From NCBI RefSeq assembly GCF_003633755.1, contig NZ_RBIL01000002.1:2108001-2172000 (forward strand): DNA of 64,000 nucleotides. The letters are read 5' to 3'. The stretch is from Solirubrobacter pauli. Lineage in GTDB: Bacteria > Actinomycetota > Thermoleophilia > Solirubrobacterales > Solirubrobacteraceae. Every line of letters starts with the position of its first letter. Positions within the stretch are counted from its first letter, which is position 1. The position numbers and the translations under genes were made by a program. Positions 4,118 to 44,565 of the stretch are shown piece after piece. The notes below the pieces were generated by a model. It worked only from the letters and a program-made list of their open reading frames with translations. It was not told the origin of the DNA and did not search any database.

Positions 4118-4477
4118 ATGGGACGGACCCTGCTCGTGGTCGTCGCCTGCGTGGTCGCGGGGGCGTATTGGTTCGGCGTCTACGCGATCGCGGCGCGCTT
4201 CGTGCTGCACGGCCCCGTCACCCACGAGTCGGTCACGCGGTCGGTGTACGACGAGGCGCCGTTCGGCTGGCTGAGCCTGCCCGAATGCGAGTTCGACCGC
4301 GAGCCCTGGTCCTGCCTGGTCCACGACGACTCCGGCGGGGGCGCCGTCTACGACGTCGTACGACGTCCGGACAGCTCGTGCTGGGACGCGACGTTGACGG
4401 CGAACGTCTCGTCCGAGGTCGAGCCACCGAAGACCTTCAGCGGCTGCGTGCCCCTCTGGCAGTGGGCGATCTTCTAG
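4118..4477 (+). CDS. Small single-pass membrane or secreted protein
   Basis: I do not recognise this gene. It encodes 119 residues with one N-terminal hydrophobic segment (residues 3-27, LLVVVACVVAGAYWFGVYAIAA) and a short exported domain with four cysteines (PECEF, SCLVHDD, SSCWDATL, SGCVPLW), so two disulfides are plausible. The ATG follows a short spacer and has no good ribosome site. Its last 4 bp overlap the convergent recG stop. Codon use is like that of its neighbours. Confidence 0.55.
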   Translation: MGRTLLVVVACVVAGAYWFGVYAIAARFVLHGPVTHESVTRSVYDEAPFGWLSLPECEFDREPWSCLVHDDSGGGAVYDVVRRPDSSCWDATLTANVSSEVEPPKTFSGCVPLWQWAIF

Positions 4478-6567
4478 GCCGGGATCGGCTCGAGCGCGTC
4501 GGACCCGTAGGCGCGCATGATCGCGTCCTCGATCAGCGTGTGCTCGGGCTCGCGCAGCTCCGGGTCCGCGTCGAGGATCTCGCGGGCGTGGCGGCGGGCG
4601 CGTTCGAGCAGCTCGAGGTCCTCGGGCAGCCGGGCGAACTTGAACGCCTGCAGCCCCGACTGGCGGACGCCGAGCATCTCCCCCTCCCCGCGCAGCTCGA
4701 GGTCGATCTCGGCCAGCCGGAAGCCGTCGGAGTGCTGGGCCATCGCCTGCAGTCGGCGTGACTCCTTCGGGCCGAAGAGCAGGCAGACGGAGTCGTACTG
4801 GCCGCGGCCGATCCGGCCGCGCAGCTGGTGCAGCTGGCTCAGGCCGTAGCGCTCGGAGTCCTCGACGAGCATGACGGTGGCGTTCGGGACGTCGATGCCG
4901 ACCTCGATCACCGTCGTGGCGACCAGGACGTCGGCCCCACCGCCGGCGAACGCCTGCATGGCCTCCTGCTTCTCCCGCGGGCGCATCTGGCCGTGCATCA
5001 GGACGACCCGGTAGTCCTTGAGCTCGCCGCCGCGCAGGCGCTCGAACTCGGCGGTGGCGGCGCGCGCCTGCAGCGCCTCGGACTCCTCGACCAGCGGGCA
5101 GACGACGAACGCCTGGCGGCCCTTGTCGAGCTCCTCGCGGATGCGCTCGTAGGCGCGGGCCCGCTCGTTGTCCGTGGACGCGACGTAGGTGTCGATCGGC
5201 TTGCGGCCGGCCGGCAGCTCGTGCAGCGTCGTGACGTCCAGGTCGCCGTAGGCGGTGAGCGCGAGCGTGCGCGGGATCGGCGTGGCCGTCATGTGCAGGA
5301 TGTGCGGCGCGCGGCCCGCCGGCGCCTTGCGGTCCAGCTTGCGGCGCTGGTTGACGCCGAACCGGTGCTGCTCGTCCACGACCGCGACGAGCAGGCGGTC
5401 GAACTCCACCGCGTCCTCGATCAGCGCATGGGTGCCGACGAGGATCTTCAGCTCGCCGCTCGCGAGCTTGCCGAGCAGGTCGTTGCGGCGCGACTGCGGC
5501 GTGGACCCGGTCAGCAGCGCGGCCTGGACGAGCTCGCCCGGCATCAGCTTCTGGAGGGTGGCGAAGTGCTGCTCGGCGAGCGTCTCGGTCGGCGCCATCA
5601 GCGCGGCCTGCCCGCCCGACTCGACCGCGCGCAGCATCGCGTAGAGCGCGACGACGGTCTTGCCGGACCCGACCTCGCCCATCAGCAGGCGCTGCATCGG
5701 GCGGTCGGACGCGACGTCCTCGTCGATCGTCTCCATGGCGCGCTTCTGGTCCCCGGTCGGCGTGAACGGGAGCGAGTCCTTCAGCCAGCGGGCGGTGAGG
5801 TCGGCCGGCGGGCTCAGCGCCTCCGCCCGCGCGCCCTCGCGCCGACGCGCACGGCGGCGGAGCAGCGCGATCTGCAGCAGCAGGAACTCGTCGAAGGCGA
5901 GCCGCCGGCGGCCGCCCTCTTGGTCACCGAAGTGCGCGGCGTCGACGGCGGCCCAGCGGTCCGGCAGCCGTTCGAGCGCGCGGATGCGGGCCGGCAGCGG
6001 CTCGAGCACGTTGCGCATCTCGGCCCGCTGCTCGTGCACGAGCGCGGCGATCTGCACGGACGTCAGCCCTTCGCTGGCCGGGTAGGTCGCCATGTCCTCG
6101 CCCGTGGACACGAGCTCGCCCGTCTCGGCGTGCTCGTTGACGCGGAACCCACGCTGGCCCTGGTACTTGCCGGTCAGCAGGAGCCGGGTGCCGGGCCGGT
6201 AGCGGCGCTCGAGCCACGGCTGGTTGAAGAACGTCACGCCCATCGTGCCGGTCTCGTCGGAGACGCGGGCGCTGACGAGCGGCTTCATGCCCCGCCGCCG
6301 CACCTGGCGGCTCGTGATGCTCAGCACCTCCACGACGACCGTCGCGGTCTCCCCCTCCACCAGGTCCCCGATCGTGCGGGCGGCACGACGGTCGCGCGGG
6401 ATGTGGTCCAGCAGCGCGCCGATGCTCGTGAGGCCCAGCTTCGCCCCCGCCTTCTCGGCCTTCTCGCCGGGCAGCTCGAGCTCGCGGTCGAGCCTCGCGG
6501 GGCGCGGGATGCGCGGACGCCCGCCCTCGGGGAGCGGGTCGGAGCTGGCGAATGCGGTCGGCGGCAC
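4474..6567 (-). CDS. recG: ATP-dependent DNA helicase RecG
   Basis: RecG remodels stalled replication forks and drives branch migration of recombination intermediates. The N-terminal third carries the wedge/OB domain (VEGETATVVVEVLSI region). The helicase core has Walker A GEVGSGKT, the RecG-type DEQHRFGV box, TATPIPRTLALT, ATTVIEVGIDVPNAT and QLRGRIGRG. I chose the GTG at 6567 (about 697 residues, normal length); longer frames would run into the divergent permease leader. The conserved order rpmB-fakA-recG-coaD is kept on this strand, but a permease/UspA pair on the other strand splits recG from fakA. Confidence 0.95.
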   Translation of the reverse strand: MPPTAFASSDPLPEGGRPRIPRPARLDRELELPGEKAEKAGAKLGLTSIGALLDHIPRDRRAARTIGDLVEGETATVVVEVLSITSRQVRRRGMKPLVSARVSDETGTMGVTFFNQPWLERRYRPGTRLLLTGKYQGQRGFRVNEHAETGELVSTGEDMATYPASEGLTSVQIAALVHEQRAEMRNVLEPLPARIRALERLPDRWAAVDAAHFGDQEGGRRRLAFDEFLLLQIALLRRRARRREGARAEALSPPADLTARWLKDSLPFTPTGDQKRAMETIDEDVASDRPMQRLLMGEVGSGKTVVALYAMLRAVESGGQAALMAPTETLAEQHFATLQKLMPGELVQAALLTGSTPQSRRNDLLGKLASGELKILVGTHALIEDAVEFDRLLVAVVDEQHRFGVNQRRKLDRKAPAGRAPHILHMTATPIPRTLALTAYGDLDVTTLHELPAGRKPIDTYVASTDNERARAYERIREELDKGRQAFVVCPLVEESEALQARAATAEFERLRGGELKDYRVVLMHGQMRPREKQEAMQAFAGGGADVLVATTVIEVGIDVPNATVMLVEDSERYGLSQLHQLRGRIGRGQYDSVCLLFGPKESRRLQAMAQHSDGFRLAEIDLELRGEGEMLGVRQSGLQAFKFARLPEDLELLERARRHAREILDADPELREPEHTLIEDAIMRAYGSDALEPIPA

Positions 6568-36283: not shown

Positions 36284-36504
36284 CAGATAGGCGCGAGCAT
36301 CGAGGATTGACAGTGCCCGCACATATACAGGGCCGTGTTCGACATCCGCACGATCGTCGAGTGCTCGCCGCAGTTTGGGCACACGCTGCGAAGTTCGAAC
36401 CGGTGCAGGCAGTTGACGCAGCGGTAGCGCCCGGGCAGGTTGGTCGCGCGCAGCCACGGCTCGTGGCAGGCGGGGCAGATCGCGCCCGTCTCGGTCTCGC
36501 TCAA
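36283..36504 (-). CDS. Small double zinc-ribbon protein
   Basis: The 73-residue protein has four CxxC pairs, CPAC, CVNC, CPNC and CGHC, evenly spaced so that they could form two zinc ribbons, with a basic and aromatic linker (RATNLPGRYRCVN, HRFELRSV). I know no function for it. The ATG overlaps the rsmB stop (ATGA) and the stop shares one base with the rpe ATG. It is thus locked between two conserved genes; a link to RNA or ribosome metabolism is only a guess. Confidence 0.72.
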   Translation of the reverse strand: MSETETGAICPACHEPWLRATNLPGRYRCVNCLHRFELRSVCPNCGEHSTIVRMSNTALYMCGHCQSSMLAPI

Positions 36505-37841
36505 GAGGCTCGCCTCAGCCGCGCGATGAAGAAACCGTCCGTCCGGTCTCTGTGCGGGAGCGTCTGCAGGTGCTGCGGCATGGTCGGATGCTTCCAGAGC
36601 GGGAGCTCAGTTCCTAGGTCATCGACGGTGAAGTCTGGATGACCGGCCAGGAAGGCGCTCACCACTTGCTCGTTCTCACCGGGCGAGATCGTGCACGTCG
36701 AGTACACGAGGGTACCGCCGGGCCTGAGTGCGTTCGCTCCGGCCTGCAGGATCTGCTGCTGCAAGCCGGCCAGCGCCTCCGGCCGGCCGGCCTTGCGCCA
36801 GCGGGCGTCCGGACGCGAGGCCAGCGTGCCGAGGTCACTGCAGGGCGGGTCGACGAGGACGCGGTCGAACGTGCCGTCGGCGGGCTCGGTCGCGTCGCGG
36901 TTCTGCACCTCGACGATGGTCGCCCCCATGCGCGCGGCCGTACGCGTGAGCGCGCCCGCGCGACCGACGTGCTTCTCGACGGCGACGACCTGGCCCTCAT
37001 TGCGCATGAGGGCGGCCAGGTGGGTGGTCTTGCCGCCGGGCGCGGCGCACAGGTCGAGCACGCGCTCGCCGGGCTGCGGGTCCAGGAGGCGGCCGACGGC
37101 CATCGCGGCGCGAGACTGCGGCATCAGCAGGCCCTGCTCCCACTCCGGGGCCGAGAACGCGTCGAAGGGCTGGTCGAGGATCAGCGCGTCCTGCTCGACC
37201 CGGGCGTCGACCTGCAGCCGCTCCAGTAGCTCGACGGCCGTGGTCTTGAGCGTGTTCGCGCGCAGGACCGCTTCGGCGGACGTGTTGTCGGCGGCCATCA
37301 GGGCGCGGGCGTCCTCCGGGCCCAGGGCGTCGAACCACAGCTGCGCGATCCACTCCGGGTGCGAGTGGGCGAGCGCGGCGTGCTGAGGCGTGTCGTCCTT
37401 GAGCCTGGCGATCAGCGGACGGGCTTCGCGGCTTGCGCGGCGGAGCACGGCGTTGACCAGGCCGGCGCCGCGCGGCGCGTCCCGCTTGGCGAGCTCGACC
37501 GACTCCCCCACCGCCGCGTGCGCGGGGACGCGGTCCAGGAAGGTCAGCTGAAAGACACCAAGGCGAAGCGCGGCCAGCACCGGCTTGTCGAGCTTGGCCG
37601 GGACGCGGCCGGCGAGCTGCTCGATCACGTGGTCGAGCGTCGCGACCCGTTGCACGGTCCCGTAGCTGAGCTGCGTGGCGAGGCCGAGATCGCGCGCGTC
37701 CAGCCGCAGACGGCGGGCTTCGCCGTGCAGCGCGCGGTCGGCCCAGGCGCCGCCCTCGAACACGCGTCGAATGACGGCATAGGCCACGGCACGGGCGGGA
37801 ATGACCCCCGCGATGGGGTCAGGACTCGATGGTTCGTCCAT
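36501..37841 (-). CDS. rsmB: 16S rRNA (cytosine-967-C5) methyltransferase
   Basis: RsmB methylates C967 in 16S rRNA. The N-terminal NusB-like helical domain covers about 1-150. The SAM domain has DLCAAPGGKTTHLAALM, the DPPCSDLG and STCTISPGENEQVV cysteines of RNA m5C enzymes, and a final DGFFIARLRR. At 446 residues the length is normal. It is translationally coupled to the zinc-ribbon gene. Upstream, the surface protein and repeat region replace the usual direct contact with fmt. Confidence 0.94.
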   Translation of the reverse strand: MDEPSSPDPIAGVIPARAVAYAVIRRVFEGGAWADRALHGEARRLRLDARDLGLATQLSYGTVQRVATLDHVIEQLAGRVPAKLDKPVLAALRLGVFQLTFLDRVPAHAAVGESVELAKRDAPRGAGLVNAVLRRASREARPLIARLKDDTPQHAALAHSHPEWIAQLWFDALGPEDARALMAADNTSAEAVLRANTLKTTAVELLERLQVDARVEQDALILDQPFDAFSAPEWEQGLLMPQSRAAMAVGRLLDPQPGERVLDLCAAPGGKTTHLAALMRNEGQVVAVEKHVGRAGALTRTAARMGATIVEVQNRDATEPADGTFDRVLVDPPCSDLGTLASRPDARWRKAGRPEALAGLQQQILQAGANALRPGGTLVYSTCTISPGENEQVVSAFLAGHPDFTVDDLGTELPLWKHPTMPQHLQTLPHRDRTDGFFIARLRRAS

Positions 37842-37982: not shown

Positions 37983-38095
37983 CTCGATGCTCGTACGTTC
38001 GTCCAATTGCCCCGCCAGATTCTTAATTTCTTCCGATAGGGCTAATGGTCCGCGTACAACTTGCCGACACATCCCCGCAGAAGGGGATGAACAGC

Positions 38096-39415
38096 ATGTC
38101 GGACACTGACACCAAGAACTTCACGCCGCGGCCTTCCGCGATGAGCGACCTGCGTCTCGCGGGCACGATCGCGACCGGTCTGGTCGCCGGGACGCTGGGT
38201 CTCGGCGCGCTCGCCGCGCCGCTCGTCGGCTGGAAGGACTGGCCGTCCGGGCTCGAGAAGGACGCCACGGCGCAGCCACTGACGATGGCTGCCGTGCCGA
38301 AGGAGAAGCGCCCGGACGCCGCCAACCGGTCGAAGACCGGCACGGGCCAGACCGGCAGCACCAACGGCGCGACCCCGCTCAACACGCTCAGCGTGGCGGG
38401 TGTGGGTGGCGGCGGCGCCGGCGGCACCGGCGGTGCAGGCCTCAACGTGCTGATCGCGGACAGCGGCGGCGCCACCGAGACGGGCTCGAGCGAGCGCTCG
38501 GCCGGTCCGCGCGGCTCTGACGCCCGCGCCGGCAACACGAGCACGTCCGAGACGGGCGAGGGCTCGGTCGATCCGACGCTGCGCGACAAGGGCTTCGCCA
38601 CGCCGGACCTCGACGACGACGACGGCGACGGCCTCCAGAACGACAAGGAGCGCGCGGTCGGCAGCAACCCCGCCCAGGCGGACGCGAAGACGATCGTCGC
38701 CGAGAAGAACCTGACCGCGGACACGCTGGTCCGGATCGCCTCCGGCACGCCGGCCGCCGACACCAACGGCGACGGCAAGATCGACGGCGACGACGACTCC
38801 GACGGCGACGGCATCTCCAACGCGGTCGAAGAGGCCAACGGCAGCGACCCGCTGAACCAGGACTCCGACGGCGACGGCAACCCGGACTCGATGGACGACC
38901 GCAACGGCGACGGCTACCCGGACGGCCTGCCCGTTCCGAGCACCCCGCCGGCCGGCGACCCCGTCGACGCGGACCCGACCCCGGTCGACCCGCCCGTCGA
39001 GCAGACCCCGGTCGAGGACGACACGCCCGCGCCCGCCCCGGTCGACGAGCCGCCCGTCACGACGCCGGACCCCGGCACCGACGCCCCGGGCCAGCCCGAA
39101 GCCGAGACCCCGCCCGCCGAAGCGACCCCCGCGCCCGAGGCTCCCGCCCCGGCGCCGGCTCCGGAAGAGGCCCCCGAGACCGAGGCGCCGCCGGCCCCCG
39201 AGCCCGCGCCGCAGGTCCAGGAGCCCGCTCCGGCCCCGGCCGAGGCTCCGGCACCGGCTCCGGCCGCGGTCGCCGAGGCCCCTGCCCCGGCCCCGGCTCC
39301 GGTCGAGGCCCCGGCGCCTGCCCCGGCCCCGGCCGAGACCCCGGCGCCCGCCCAGGCCGAGCAGCCGGCGGTGGCGACCCCGGCCGAGGACCCGGCGGCG
39401 ACGCCGGCCTGGTAA
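38096..39415 (+). CDS. Surface protein with thrombospondin-3-like calcium repeats and Pro-Ala-Glu tail
   Basis: The product (about 439 residues) has an N-terminal hydrophobic segment (LAGTIATGLVAGTLGLGALAA) that is a signal or anchor. A Gly/Ser/Thr-rich stretch follows. Aspartate-rich repeats come next: DDDDGDGLQNDKE, DTNGDGKIDGDDD, DSDGDGISNAVEEANGSDP and DSDGDGNPDSMDD, the DxDxDG loop of thrombospondin type 3 calcium sites. The last ~150 residues are Pro/Ala/Glu repeats likely to span the cell wall. No LPXTG sorting signal is seen. I chose the ATG at 38096 because AAGGGG lies about 9 nt upstream. A calcium-stabilised wall protein is inferred. Confidence 0.75.
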   Translation: MSDTDTKNFTPRPSAMSDLRLAGTIATGLVAGTLGLGALAAPLVGWKDWPSGLEKDATAQPLTMAAVPKEKRPDAANRSKTGTGQTGSTNGATPLNTLSVAGVGGGGAGGTGGAGLNVLIADSGGATETGSSERSAGPRGSDARAGNTSTSETGEGSVDPTLRDKGFATPDLDDDDGDGLQNDKERAVGSNPAQADAKTIVAEKNLTADTLVRIASGTPAADTNGDGKIDGDDDSDGDGISNAVEEANGSDPLNQDSDGDGNPDSMDDRNGDGYPDGLPVPSTPPAGDPVDADPTPVDPPVEQTPVEDDTPAPAPVDEPPVTTPDPGTDAPGQPEAETPPAEATPAPEAPAPAPAPEEAPETEAPPAPEPAPQVQEPAPAPAEAPAPAPAAVAEAPAPAPAPVEAPAPAPAPAETPAPAQAEQPAVATPAEDPAATPAW

Positions 39416-40192: not shown

Positions 40193-41830
40193 TCAGTCCC
40201 CGTCGAGGTGCGAGGCGGTCTCGTCCAACAGGTGCCGGCGCCACACGCTGTCGTCCAAGGACTCTCGTCCGGCGAGGAGGTCGCGGGCCGGCGCTTCGGC
40301 GCGTTCGTCGCCGCGCAGGGCGAGGCCGTGGACGGCTTCCATGCGGGTGTCCTCGTCGGGGTCGTCGAGGCGCGCGGCCAGCGCGTCACGCAGGGCGGGG
40401 TTGTCGGCTTCGGCGAGGGTGCCGAGGGCGAAGGTTGCCCAGTCGCGGACCTTCGGGTCCTCGTCGGCGGAAAGGTCGATCAGGGCCGCGAGCGTGTCCT
40501 CGCCGCGGCGGCCGCCCAGGGCGAAGGCGACGGCCTCGCGGACGTAGGCGTCCGCGTGGGCGCGTTGGGCCAGCAGCCAGTCGTGGCCGGCGGTCCCGCC
40601 GAGGTGGCCGAAGGCGCAGATGATCGCGCTGAGGACGTGCGGGTTGGACTCGCGCGCGGCCATGTCGCGCAGGGCGGACTCCTGCTCGGCGGGCAGGGCA
40701 GGCGTCGTGGTGCCGAGCTGGCCGAGCACGTAGGCGGCGAGCTCGCGCAGCTCGGGGTCCTCGTCGCCGGCCAGGACGGTCATGGCGGTGAGCGTGTCGG
40801 CGTCGCCGCGGGCGGCGAGGGCGCAGACGTGCGGCTGCCACTCGTCCTCGGGGTCGCGCCACTCGCGCTTGGCGGTGACGAGGACCTCGTCCAGCGGGCG
40901 GTCGGGCAAGGCGGGGTCGAAGCGGAAGTTCGTGAGCTTCTCGTCGCGCTGGCCGCGCAGCCAGTCGGCAGCGGGCATGACCTTGCCGCCGGGCGGCCGC
41001 ACCTCCGTGATCTCCAGGGCACCGCCGTGGCAGTCGAGCAGCAGCCGCAGGCCGTCGGTGCGCACGAGGCCGCCGGCGGGCGCGCGGGTCGGGCCGTCCA
41101 CGCGCGCGTCGATCACGCCGAGGAAGGTGCCATCGGGCAGCTTGAGCCGCGACCCGATGTGCGGGCGCAGCGCGCGGATCGTGCGCTCGACCTCGGCAGG
41201 CGTCTGGGTCGGGTCCAGCGCGCGCTCGCGCGGACCGATCTTGTTCGCGTAGGTGACGCCGGCCTCGTCTTGCTCGACCGGCGTGGGCCGCTCGTCGAGC
41301 ACCTGCACGAGCAACCGCGCGCCCAGCTCCTCCAGGCGCGGGACCAGCGTGCCGTAGTCGTCGTCCGCGCGGATCGGCTCGCGGCCGAGCGCGTAGACGG
41401 GCCCGGAGTCCCAGCCCGCGGTCACGCGCATGATCGCCACGCCCGTCTCCGCGTCCCCCGCCATGATCGAGCGCTCGATCGGCGCCGCGCCCCGCCAGCG
41501 CGGCAGCAGCGACGGATGCACGTTGATCATCTCGTAGTCGCTGAGCAGCGGCTCCTTGATCAACACGCCGTACGCGCACGTGGTCAGCACCTCGGGCGAC
41601 GCGGCGGCGATCGCGCCCAGCGTCTCCTCCGAGTGCAGCTCCTCCGGCTGGATGAACGGGATGCCGAGCTCGGCCGCGAGCACCGCGACCGGCGGCGGCG
41701 CGAGCTTCTGACCGCGGCCCTGCTTGGCGTCCGGCCGGGTGACGACGAGCTGCGGCCGATGCGCGCTGTCGGCGAGCGCGCGCAGCACGACGGCCGCGAA
41801 CTCCGAGGTGCCGAGGTAGACGTTTCTCAA
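40193..41830 (-). CDS. fmt: Methionyl-tRNA formyltransferase fused to a HEAT-repeat domain
   Basis: Residues 1-295 are a complete Fmt, which formylates initiator Met-tRNA with 10-formyl-THF. The catalytic Asn103, His105 (NVHPSLLP) and Asp141 (WDSGPVY) are present, and the C-terminal tRNA-binding barrel ends at KVMPAADWLRGQR. The frame then continues for about 250 residues of alpha-helical HEAT-like repeats from RPLDEVLVTAKREWRDPEDE, with units such as DEDPELRELAAYVLGQLG, DEDPKVRDWATFALGTL and DPDEDTRMEAVHGLALRG. The total of 545 residues compares with about 310 for normal Fmt. No stop or frameshift lies between the parts. The start overlaps the def stop (ATGA), as in the usual def-fmt operon. 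Confidence 0.93.
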   Translation of the reverse strand: MRNVYLGTSEFAAVVLRALADSAHRPQLVVTRPDAKQGRGQKLAPPPVAVLAAELGIPFIQPEELHSEETLGAIAAASPEVLTTCAYGVLIKEPLLSDYEMINVHPSLLPRWRGAAPIERSIMAGDAETGVAIMRVTAGWDSGPVYALGREPIRADDDYGTLVPRLEELGARLLVQVLDERPTPVEQDEAGVTYANKIGPRERALDPTQTPAEVERTIRALRPHIGSRLKLPDGTFLGVIDARVDGPTRAPAGGLVRTDGLRLLLDCHGGALEITEVRPPGGKVMPAADWLRGQRDEKLTNFRFDPALPDRPLDEVLVTAKREWRDPEDEWQPHVCALAARGDADTLTAMTVLAGDEDPELRELAAYVLGQLGTTTPALPAEQESALRDMAARESNPHVLSAIICAFGHLGGTAGHDWLLAQRAHADAYVREAVAFALGGRRGEDTLAALIDLSADEDPKVRDWATFALGTLAEADNPALRDALAARLDDPDEDTRMEAVHGLALRGDERAEAPARDLLAGRESLDDSVWRRHLLDETASHLDGD

Positions 41831-42408
41831 GCGGCCGTGGCTTCGAGCTTTTCGCGGAGGGTGCGCATGGCCTGCTTGCGCTGGTCACGCGACGTGCGGT
41901 CCAGGATGAGGACGCCGTCCAGGTGGTCCATCTCGTGCTGGATGACGCGGGCCTCGAGCCCCGAGGCCTCGACGAGGATCGGCTTGCCGTACTCGTCCAG
42001 GGCGGATACGCGCACGTGGACGGGCCGCTCCACGTCCACGCCGACGCCCGGCAGCGACAGGCAGCCCTCCTCGGACGTCTCCTTGTCCTTGCTCGCCCAC
42101 TCCAGCACGGGGTTGACGAGCGCGGCGATCGAGCCCTCGAGCTCGGTGCGGTAGACGAGCAGCCGGTGCACCCGGCCCACCTGGGTAGCGGCCAGCCCGA
42201 TCCCGTAGGAGTCGTGCATCAGGCGGCCCATGCGGCGGACCTCCTCGCGCAACTCCTCGTCGAAGCGGGTGATCTCCAGCGCGCGGGTACGCAGCACCGG
42301 GTCGCCGTACTTGCGGACGAACTTGAGCGCGGCCTCGCGGCGGGCGCGCGTCTCGGGATCGAGCTGATCGCCGGGCTCTACGACCTGTCCGTGCGCTTCA
42401 TCGGCCAC
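41827..42408 (-). CDS. def: Peptide deformylase
   Basis: Def removes the formyl group from nascent proteins. The three conserved motifs are present: GIGLAATQ (69-76), EEGCLSLP (113-120, metal ligand Cys116) and QHEMDH (157-162, ligands His158 and His162, catalytic Glu159). The first ~28 residues are an acidic extension. It lies between priA (9-bp gap) and fmt (4-bp overlap), so formylation and deformylation enzymes are made together. Confidence 0.96.
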   Translation of the reverse strand: MADEAHGQVVEPGDQLDPETRARREAALKFVRKYGDPVLRTRALEITRFDEELREEVRRMGRLMHDSYGIGLAATQVGRVHRLLVYRTELEGSIAALVNPVLEWASKDKETSEEGCLSLPGVGVDVERPVHVRVSALDEYGKPILVEASGLEARVIQHEMDHLDGVLILDRTSRDQRKQAMRTLREKLEATAA

Positions 42409-42417
42409 AGGTCGATC

Positions 42418-44565
42418 TTAGACCGGGTCGACGTCCACGGAGAAGTTGACCTCCTTGAACGCCTTGGTGCGCGCGGCCTCCTCGACCGCGACCCCGACCG
42501 CGTGGATCGCCGCACCCCGCTGATGGGTCTTGAGGACGAGCTGGTACCGATCGCGGTCGCGCAGGCGGAACAGCGGCGCCGGGCCGAGCAGCTCCGTCTC
42601 GGGCACCTTGACCTGCTCGGCGATCGCGACCGCCGCGGCGCGCGCCGGCTCCGGAGCGGTGGCGCTCGTCACCACCCGGATCAGGTCCGCGAACGGCGGA
42701 TAGTCGTGCGCGCGCCGGCGCGCGAGCTCCTCGCGCAGGAAGCCGTCGCTGTCGTGGTTGGCGGCGGCGAGGATCGACGGCGCGTCGGGGCTGCGCGTCT
42801 GGACGAGCACGCGCCCGCCCTTGGGCCCGCGCCCGGCGCGACCGGCGAGCTGCGCGATCAACGCGAACGTGCGCTCCTCCGCGCGGAAGTCGGGGAACCG
42901 CAGCGTCGAGTCCGCGTCGAGCACGACGCCCAGCGTCACGTCCGGGAAGTCGTGGCCCTTGGCGACCATCTGCGTCCCGAGCAGCAGCCCGGCCGGCGCG
43001 GCGTGGAAGCGCGCGAGTAGCTCCGGCACCGCGTCCTTGGCCTGAGTCGTGTCGGCGTCCAGGCGGAAGATCGGCACGTCGAGCATCTGACGCAGCTCGT
43101 GCTCGACCCGCTCGGTACCGGCCCCGTGCCGGGCGACCGCCAGCGACCCGCACGCGTCGCAGCGCTTGGGGACCGGCTCCTTGTGCCCGCAGTGATGGCA
43201 GGCGATCTCGTGCTGGGCGCGATGCAGCACGAGCGCGACGTCGCAGCGCGGGCACTCCCACGCCTTGCCGCACGTCTTGCACGAGAGGAAGTTCGACCAG
43301 CCGCGCCGGTTCAGGAGCACGATCGACTTGCGGGAGGCGAGGATCGCTCGGCGCGTCTCGGGGTGCAGCGCGTGCTGGGCCTCGCGCATGTCGAGGATGC
43401 GGACGGGCGGCAGGCCATCGGGGCGGCGGGCGCTGATCGCGGGGGCCGAGCGCGCGCCGCCGACGATCACGCCCGGCGCGCCCGGCTCGTCCGCGAACAC
43501 CAGCGGCTTGCGCGGCGCGCCGGTCTCCACGCGCGCGGGCAGGCGCAGGCTGTGCATCGTGTGCACGGTCTCCGGGCGCGGCGTCGCGGAGCCGGCGACG
43601 AGCCGCGCGCCCGACTGGTACGCGCGGAACGCGGCGACGTGGCGCGCGTCGTAGCGGGGGTCTCCGTCCTGCTTGTAGGACGCGTCGTGCTCCTCGTCGA
43701 CCACGATCAGCCCGAGGTTCTCGATCGGCGCGAACACGGCCGACCGCGGACCGACCGCGATCCGCGCCTCCCCGGTGCGCAGGCGCCGCCACTCGTCGTA
43801 GCGCTCGCCCTCGGACAGCGCGGAGTGCAGCAGCGCGACCGTGTCCCCGAAGCGCGCCTGGAAGCGCGCGACGGTCTGCGGCGTGAGCGCGATCTCCGGC
43901 ACCAGCACGATCACGCCCTCCCCCCGCGCGAGCGCCGCCTGCGCCGCGCGCAGGTACACCTCGGTCTTGCCCGAGCCGGTGACCCCGTGCAGCAGGTGCG
44001 AGCCACCGGCGTCGATCGCGTCGAGCGCCTGCTGCTGGGCGGCCGTGAGGTCGTGCGTCCTGTCCTCGGTGACGTTGGTGCGCGGCGTCCGGCGCTCCGT
44101 GCGCTCGCCGATGGTCACCAGGCCGCGCGCCTCCAGGCGGCGTAAGGCGGCCAGGTCCTTGCCGGCCGGGCCGGGCAGCCGCTCCATCAGCTCCCGCTGC
44201 TTGTCGGTGAGCTTGCCGGTCTCGCCCGTCGGCTCCGCGTAGAAGAACGTCTTGGCCTTGCCGGGCGGCGGCGTGACGATCGCCAGCGCACGGGCCGGCG
44301 TCGAGCAGTACTCCTCGGCCATCCACAGCGCCAGGTCGACCAGGTCCGGCGGGACCGTGTCCTCGCGCGTGGACGTGGGCGCGACGAGCTTCTCGGCCGG
44401 GACGTCCGTCGTCTCGGCCAGGGAGACCACCACGCCGTCGAGCTGCTGATGTCCGAACGGGATGCGCACGATCGACCCCGGCTGGAGCGCCAGGCCGTCG
44501 GCCGCGTAGTCGAACGGCCCGGACAGGCGGCGCGTGGTGGTGAGGGGCTCGACCCGGGCGATCAC
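42418..44565 (-). CDS. priA: Primosomal helicase PriA
   Basis: PriA restarts replication forks. The 715-residue protein has an N-terminal DNA-binding domain, Walker A GVTGSGKTEVYL, a DEEHDASYKQ box, ATP motif VAGSATPRPET and RGWSNFLSCKTCGKAWECPRCD, the start of the zinc-binding cysteine cluster (CKTC, CPRC, CHHC, CDAC). TQMVAKGHDFPDVTLG and LAGRAGRGPKGGRVLVQT complete the helicase core. All eight cysteines are present, which is notable because some actinobacterial PriA proteins have lost helicase motifs. Start GTG. It is divergent from the LAL regulator. Confidence 0.94.
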   Translation of the reverse strand: MIARVEPLTTTRRLSGPFDYAADGLALQPGSIVRIPFGHQQLDGVVVSLAETTDVPAEKLVAPTSTREDTVPPDLVDLALWMAEEYCSTPARALAIVTPPPGKAKTFFYAEPTGETGKLTDKQRELMERLPGPAGKDLAALRRLEARGLVTIGERTERRTPRTNVTEDRTHDLTAAQQQALDAIDAGGSHLLHGVTGSGKTEVYLRAAQAALARGEGVIVLVPEIALTPQTVARFQARFGDTVALLHSALSEGERYDEWRRLRTGEARIAVGPRSAVFAPIENLGLIVVDEEHDASYKQDGDPRYDARHVAAFRAYQSGARLVAGSATPRPETVHTMHSLRLPARVETGAPRKPLVFADEPGAPGVIVGGARSAPAISARRPDGLPPVRILDMREAQHALHPETRRAILASRKSIVLLNRRGWSNFLSCKTCGKAWECPRCDVALVLHRAQHEIACHHCGHKEPVPKRCDACGSLAVARHGAGTERVEHELRQMLDVPIFRLDADTTQAKDAVPELLARFHAAPAGLLLGTQMVAKGHDFPDVTLGVVLDADSTLRFPDFRAEERTFALIAQLAGRAGRGPKGGRVLVQTRSPDAPSILAAANHDSDGFLREELARRRAHDYPPFADLIRVVTSATAPEPARAAAVAIAEQVKVPETELLGPAPLFRLRDRDRYQLVLKTHQRGAAIHAVGVAVEEAARTKAFKEVNFSVDVDPV

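What the first reader, a model, noticed from the sequence alone, without database searches (positions are those of the whole stretch)
40193..41830. Methionyl-tRNA formyltransferase fused to a HEAT-repeat domain
The sequence shows an intact Fmt (all catalytic residues, complete C-terminal domain) that runs in frame into about 250 residues of HEAT-like repeats. The repeat part starts with TAKREWRDPEDEWQPHV, a pattern I know from stand-alone actinobacterial HEAT proteins. A fused scaffold could tie initiator-tRNA formylation to another partner such as the ribosome or the deformylase encoded in the same operon. The partner is inference.
Basis: partly seen in the sequence, partly recalled or inferred. 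Interest (0 to 1): 0.72.

Follow-up and report, generated by a model that had tools for sequence, protein, structure and literature searches.

The report
Genus-wide Fmt–HEAT fusion protein
In soil bacteria of the genus Solirubrobacter, the only enzyme that tags the first amino acid of every new protein (Fmt) carries an entire second protein, a HEAT-repeat binding module, fused to its tail; the fusion is real and conserved in all seven genomes checked, but what the extra module binds is unknown.

Summary
Window 40193-41830 (-) is one open frame of 545 aa (TTG start, overlapping the def stop). Residues 2-296 are an intact Fmt and about 313-523 a HEAT solenoid. The frame is open across the junction in 7 of 7 Solirubrobacter genomes. 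In the rest of the order (225 other genomes) every listed match is a stand-alone Fmt, and 396 sampled Actinomycetota genomes showed no second case. Sequencing error is excluded. The fused protein is the genome's only true Fmt.

In most sister loci fmt abuts rsmB. In Solirubrobacter the HEAT sequence and a convergent TSP3-repeat gene sit at that junction. The HEAT part matches whole stand-alone proteins of a YibA-like family (PDB 1oyz, Z 20.6) and is under purifying selection. A new junction motif (NFR-DPALP-R) is as conserved as Fmt itself. The module is acidic (pI 4.5), so it probably binds protein rather than tRNA.

The most likely role is a docking module on an otherwise normal Fmt. That HEAT is merely carried and co-expressed is not excluded. 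The architecture appears unreported; a functional def-fmt fusion is the nearest precedent.

The parts
40193..41830 (-). fmt-HEAT fusion gene, 545 aa, TTG start
   Evidence: single ORF; full-length orthologues in 7/7 Solirubrobacter genomes
40943..41830 (-). Fmt part, residues 1-296: Formyl_trans_N 3-178, Formyl_trans_C 197-294; Asn103-His105-Asp141 at the catalytic positions
   Evidence: Pfam, alignment to 1fmt
40895..40942 (-). Junction, residues 297-312, conserved NFR-DPALP-R motif (9 of 13 residues of 299-311 invariant in six species); absent from stand-alone Fmts and from stand-alone HEAT relatives
40262..40894 (-). HEAT solenoid, residues 313-523, YibA-like; acidic
   Evidence: Pfam HEAT_2/HEAT, PRK09687, model confidence ~90, 1oyz Z 20.6
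40196..40261 (-). Variable C-terminal helix and tail, residues 524-545
   Evidence: 6/22 invariant; helix 529-543 in the model
41827..42408 (-). def (peptide deformylase), stop codon overlaps the fmt TTG start
42418..44565 (-). priA, upstream in the same cluster
38045..39415 (+). Convergent gene with bacterial TSP3 repeats, lying with the HEAT sequence between fmt and rsmB in the genus
   Evidence: Pfam TSP3_bac; found at this place in three of the four relatives whose locus reaches rsmB
36501..37841 (-). rsmB (16S rRNA m5C methyltransferase), directly after fmt in most sister loci but about 2.3 kb away here

Best explanation
A genuine, genus-wide gene fusion. SHOWN: the sole Fmt of Solirubrobacter carries a complete YibA-like HEAT protein at its C-terminus, at the fmt/rsmB boundary where the genus has extra DNA. 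INFERRED: the Fmt half formylates initiator Met-tRNA in the ordinary way. The HEAT half does no chemistry; it is an acidic solenoid whose conserved inner groove (family signature RDWATF-LG, E-A--GLA-R-D-R) binds a protein partner, so that Fmt is docked next to that partner. The conserved junction motif suggests the two halves hold a set arrangement and work as one protein. Which partner is bound is not known.
For: Full-length frame in 7/7 genus members and stand-alone Fmt in all listed matches from the rest of the order; none elsewhere in 396 sampled phylum genomes among the matches listed. Stand-alone Fmts of relatives end at about (Y/W)xRGxx-stop, where the fusion reads on. Gene order priA-def-fmt-rsmB in relatives against priA-def-fmt::HEAT-(TSP3)-rsmB here. 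No ATG/GTG with a ribosome-binding site at the domain border in the window, so HEAT is most likely made only as part of the fusion. HEAT under purifying selection, omega 0.16-0.64. Junction 299-311 is 69% invariant, as high as Fmt (68%) and above HEAT (49%). HEAT pI 4.5, 48 acidic against 22 basic residues. Only one other formyltransferase in the genome, and it scores as sugar-type. An initiator-type tRNA with GGGCTCATAACCC is present.
Against: No partner, complex or activity was shown. HEAT evolves faster than Fmt. Family-wide groove residues are shared with stand-alone relatives, so their conservation need not reflect anything about formylation. The Fmt half of the predicted model is poor because only six sequences could be used, so the arrangement of the two halves is untested.
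Confidence: 0.5

Rival explanations
1. Passenger: a HEAT gene landed behind fmt, the stop was lost, and the HEAT part keeps its own older job (YibA-like binding) that has nothing to do with formylation; it simply gains steady housekeeping expression.
For: The HEAT part is a whole protein of a patchily distributed family found alone, on plasmids and fused to ankyrin repeats in other actinobacteria. Groove residues match the stand-alone family. Purifying selection on HEAT needs only HEAT's own function.
Against: The junction motif is as conserved as Fmt, more than a mere tether would need, and the fusion was never split again in seven genomes spanning 70-90% identity.
Confidence: 0.32
2. The HEAT part regulates Fmt itself, for example by folding over the tRNA-binding C-terminal domain or by joining Fmt into dimers, perhaps in response to a ligand.
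For: HEAT (pI 4.5) sits directly after the basic tRNA-binding C-terminal domain (pI 9.75), so charge could draw them together; the junction is short and conserved.
Against: No structure of the arrangement; no ligand known; charge complementarity is common.
Confidence: 0.12
3. The HEAT part is an immunity module that neutralises a toxin aimed at the cell's translation, held by Fmt.
For: E. coli YibA, the closest solved natural structure, neutralises growth inhibition by the RhsA C-terminus (PMC3150448, citing Hill and colleagues); HEAT repeats are listed among immunity proteins (PMC3482391); a relative lies in an rtcB-prfH cluster on Methylosinus plasmids.
Against: No toxin gene among the neighbours; PRK09687 score 122.5 is far below its cut-off 275; the rtcB-prfH link is one event and no PrfH above cut-off occurs in the genus.
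Confidence: 0.06

Closest known systems
Methionyl-tRNA formyltransferase (Fmt, TIGR00460; E. coli 1fmt/2fmt)
   Same: Both domains, catalytic residues, def-fmt gene order, one true copy per genome
   Different: Carries about 250 extra residues, mostly HEAT repeats, at the C-terminus
Def-Fmt fusion of Exiguobacterium (PMC12690207)
   Same: A genus-level fusion involving Fmt, shown there to be functional in E. coli
   Different: There the partner is deformylase; here it is a HEAT module and def stays a separate gene
YibA / PRK09687 HEAT protein of E. coli (1oyz)
   Same: Best natural structural match of the HEAT part (Z 20.6 over 235 residues) and sequence similarity over about 190 residues (5e-12)
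   Different: Stand-alone protein next to rhsA; 23% identity in the structural alignment; score below the family's curated cut-off
Ankyrin-HEAT proteins of other Actinomycetota (G598, G540)
   Same: Same HEAT family used as a C-terminal module of a fusion
   Different: Joined to ankyrin repeats, not to an enzyme

Membership tests
Fmt (methionyl-tRNA formyltransferase) | Formyl_trans_N plus Formyl_trans_C domains over cut-off | tested here: met
   111.7 and 40.2 bits against 26.1 and 21.1
Fmt (methionyl-tRNA formyltransferase) | Catalytic Asn-His-Asp | tested here: met
   Asn103, His105, Asp141 by alignment to 1fmt; invariant in six species
Fmt (methionyl-tRNA formyltransferase) | TIGR00460 curated cut-off 201.5 bits | tested here: inconclusive
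   194.2, just below; stand-alone Fmts of sister genera score 196.5, 202.3 and 217.3 and other fusions 192-196, so the cut-off falls in the middle of this clade
Fmt (methionyl-tRNA formyltransferase) | Only Fmt in the genome, next to def | tested here: met
   One other PF02911 protein, best scored as PRK06988-type formyltransferase and with Ala in place of the catalytic Asn; def overlaps
Fmt (methionyl-tRNA formyltransferase) | Formylates Met-tRNAfMet | not testable with these tools
   needs an assay
YibA / PRK09687 | PRK09687 curated cut-off 275 bits | tested here: not met
   122.5 bits over residues 332-511; hence called YibA-like, not YibA
YibA / PRK09687 | Same HEAT fold | tested here: met
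   1oyz top of the list, Z 20.6, 235 residues, rmsd 4.6
Rhs-type immunity protein | Encoded directly next to its toxin | tested here: not met
   neighbours are priA, def, a TSP3-repeat gene, rsmB, rpe

The most novel reading that the evidence does not exclude
Solirubrobacter docks its only Fmt, through a captured YibA-like HEAT module, onto a specific protein of translation, so that initiator-tRNA formylation is placed or controlled in the cell in a way not known from any other bacterium.
Probability: 0.3. Interest if true: 0.62.

Novelty: new variant of a known kind. Interest (0 to 1): 0.42.

Why it matters
Fmt is a near-universal bacterial enzyme, single-copy in 98.6% of reference genomes (PMC12690207), and its architecture hardly varies. 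A lineage that has welded a binding module to it gives a ready-made bait: whatever the HEAT part holds is a candidate partner of formylation. It also dates the capture of a HEAT gene into a core operon.

Tried and rejected
Sequencing error or frameshift: rejected, seven genomes agree. Internal start giving a separate HEAT protein: no ATG/GTG with a ribosome-binding site at the border in the window, only a TTG at residue 308. Copy of the genome's own HEAT paralogue: not supported, the fused HEATs form their own clade (100/100) and the paralogue groups with G176 (89/87), though deep forks are open. Other Fmt fusions suggested by long open frames (G563, G169, G184, G063): rejected, Fmt ends normally and the extra frame lies upstream as non-homologous GC-rich reading or is absent. 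RNA/tRNA binding by HEAT: unlikely at pI 4.5. Link to ribosome repair through rtcB-prfH: one plasmid lineage only and no PrfH over cut-off in the genus. Viral and phage relatives of the HEAT half: none found. Literature for an Fmt-HEAT protein: no held paper with both terms, and nothing in the Solirubrobacter genome paper PMC10722151.

Full report
OBSERVATION. The minus-strand frame 40193-41830 is open for 545 codons. It starts at TTG, whose TTGA overlaps the stop of def, as expected for coupled genes, and the same TTG start is used in the relatives. Pfam finds Formyl_trans_N (3-178), Formyl_trans_C (197-294) and HEAT repeats, all above cut-off. The first 296 residues align from end to end with E. 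coli Fmt, including the catalytic Asn, His and Asp. TIGR00460 gives 194.2 bits against a cut-off of 201.5; stand-alone Fmts of sister genera give 196.5 to 217.3, so the small shortfall belongs to the clade and not to the fusion.

NOT AN ARTEFACT. The window lies in a 7.1 Mb genome whose nearest named relatives are Solirubrobacter. All seven genomes of the genus held, this one included, have the same full-length protein (70-90% identity to the window, no stop), while the listed matches from the other genomes of the order end within or just past Fmt. In 396 genomes drawn across the phylum no second fusion appeared among the matches listed; that list is cut, so a very diverged case could be missed. 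Within the genus dN/dS over residues 331-520 is 0.16-0.64 in all 15 pairs, and 0.11-0.93 for the stretch 297-330.

HOW IT AROSE. In the sister loci the order is priA-def-fmt, and in 14 of 23 of them rsmB follows fmt within about 100 bases. Their Fmts stop at YLRGxx or similar. The Solirubrobacter protein reads WLRGQRD and goes on through a new NFR-DPALP-R stretch into a HEAT protein. Between it and rsmB lies a convergent TSP3-repeat gene, found at the same place in three of the four relatives whose held stretch reaches rsmB. The simplest account is that DNA with a HEAT gene entered between fmt and rsmB in the ancestor of the genus and the fmt stop was lost (inference).

WHAT THE SECOND HALF IS. 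It aligns with whole stand-alone proteins, N-terminal helices included: one in the same genome (G000:C2:1129766, 41%), one in a related genus (G176, 45%), in Methylosinus plasmids (41%) and in Nostoc (32%). The module is rare in the taxonomic family, 13 of 113 genomes with any match, and in some other actinobacteria it is fused to ankyrin repeats. The model gives an unbroken solenoid from about 311 to 523 with confidence near 90; the Fmt half is poor because the alignment had six sequences. The best natural structural match is E. coli YibA, 1oyz. Residues shared by fused and stand-alone proteins include Q371-L-G, F407-G-H, R462-D-W-A-T-F, and R496, E498, G502-L-A. From knowledge of designed alphaRep proteins the VRxxA helix lines the inner face, so these would form a conserved groove (inference).

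HOW IT LIKELY WORKS. Only one other protein with the Fmt C-terminal domain exists; it scores best as a PRK06988-type sugar formyltransferase and reads AAH where Fmt has N-x-H. The fused protein is thus the only candidate for formylating the initiator tRNA, and an initiator-type tRNA-Met is present. The HEAT half is strongly acidic, which speaks against tRNA binding and for a protein ligand. The junction 299-311 is as invariant as Fmt itself, which is more than a passive spacer needs. I therefore favour a docking module (0.5), with a passenger domain second (0.32).

COMPARISON WITH THE KNOWN. A survey of 5,042 reference genomes describes a def-fmt fusion in Exiguobacterium, shown to work in E. 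coli, and the passages read mention no other Fmt fusion (PMC12690207). No held paper joins Fmt with HEAT repeats. YibA neutralises RhsA (PMC3150448) and HEAT repeats are a listed immunity fold (PMC3482391), but no toxin lies near here and the family cut-off is not met. The finding is a new domain architecture built from two known families: new variant of a known kind.

Noticed in passing
L102 2690-6753 and L103 2693-6753 (Methylosinus plasmids): Cluster of RNA ligase RtcB, release factor PrfH, a 450-residue protein without any Pfam or NCBIfam match, and a YibA-like HEAT protein; RtcB2-PrfH is known to protect against colicin E3 (PMC9223846).
   Followed up: partly
L101 about 4280-5753 and L071: Fusions of ankyrin repeats with the same YibA-like HEAT family in large actinobacterial genomes (G598, G540).
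   Followed up: partly
window 38045-39415 (+): TSP3-repeat gene with a long Pro/Ala-rich C-terminus, lying with the HEAT sequence between fmt and rsmB; only its N-terminal part is well conserved in Solirubrobacter relatives.
   Followed up: partly
L009 862-1821 (+) (G000:C1): Second formyltransferase of the genome, PRK06988-like, with AAH in place of the N-x-H motif; substrate unknown.
   Followed up: no
L096 4656-5390 (-) and L099 about 4737-5453 (+): Stand-alone YibA-like HEAT paralogues in Solirubrobacter, each next to a gene for a putative exported metallopeptidase (HEYGH motif).
   Followed up: no
L100 4868-5565: YibA-like HEAT gene in G170 that looks broken by a frameshift, in a stretch with a phage-type integrase.
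   Followed up: no
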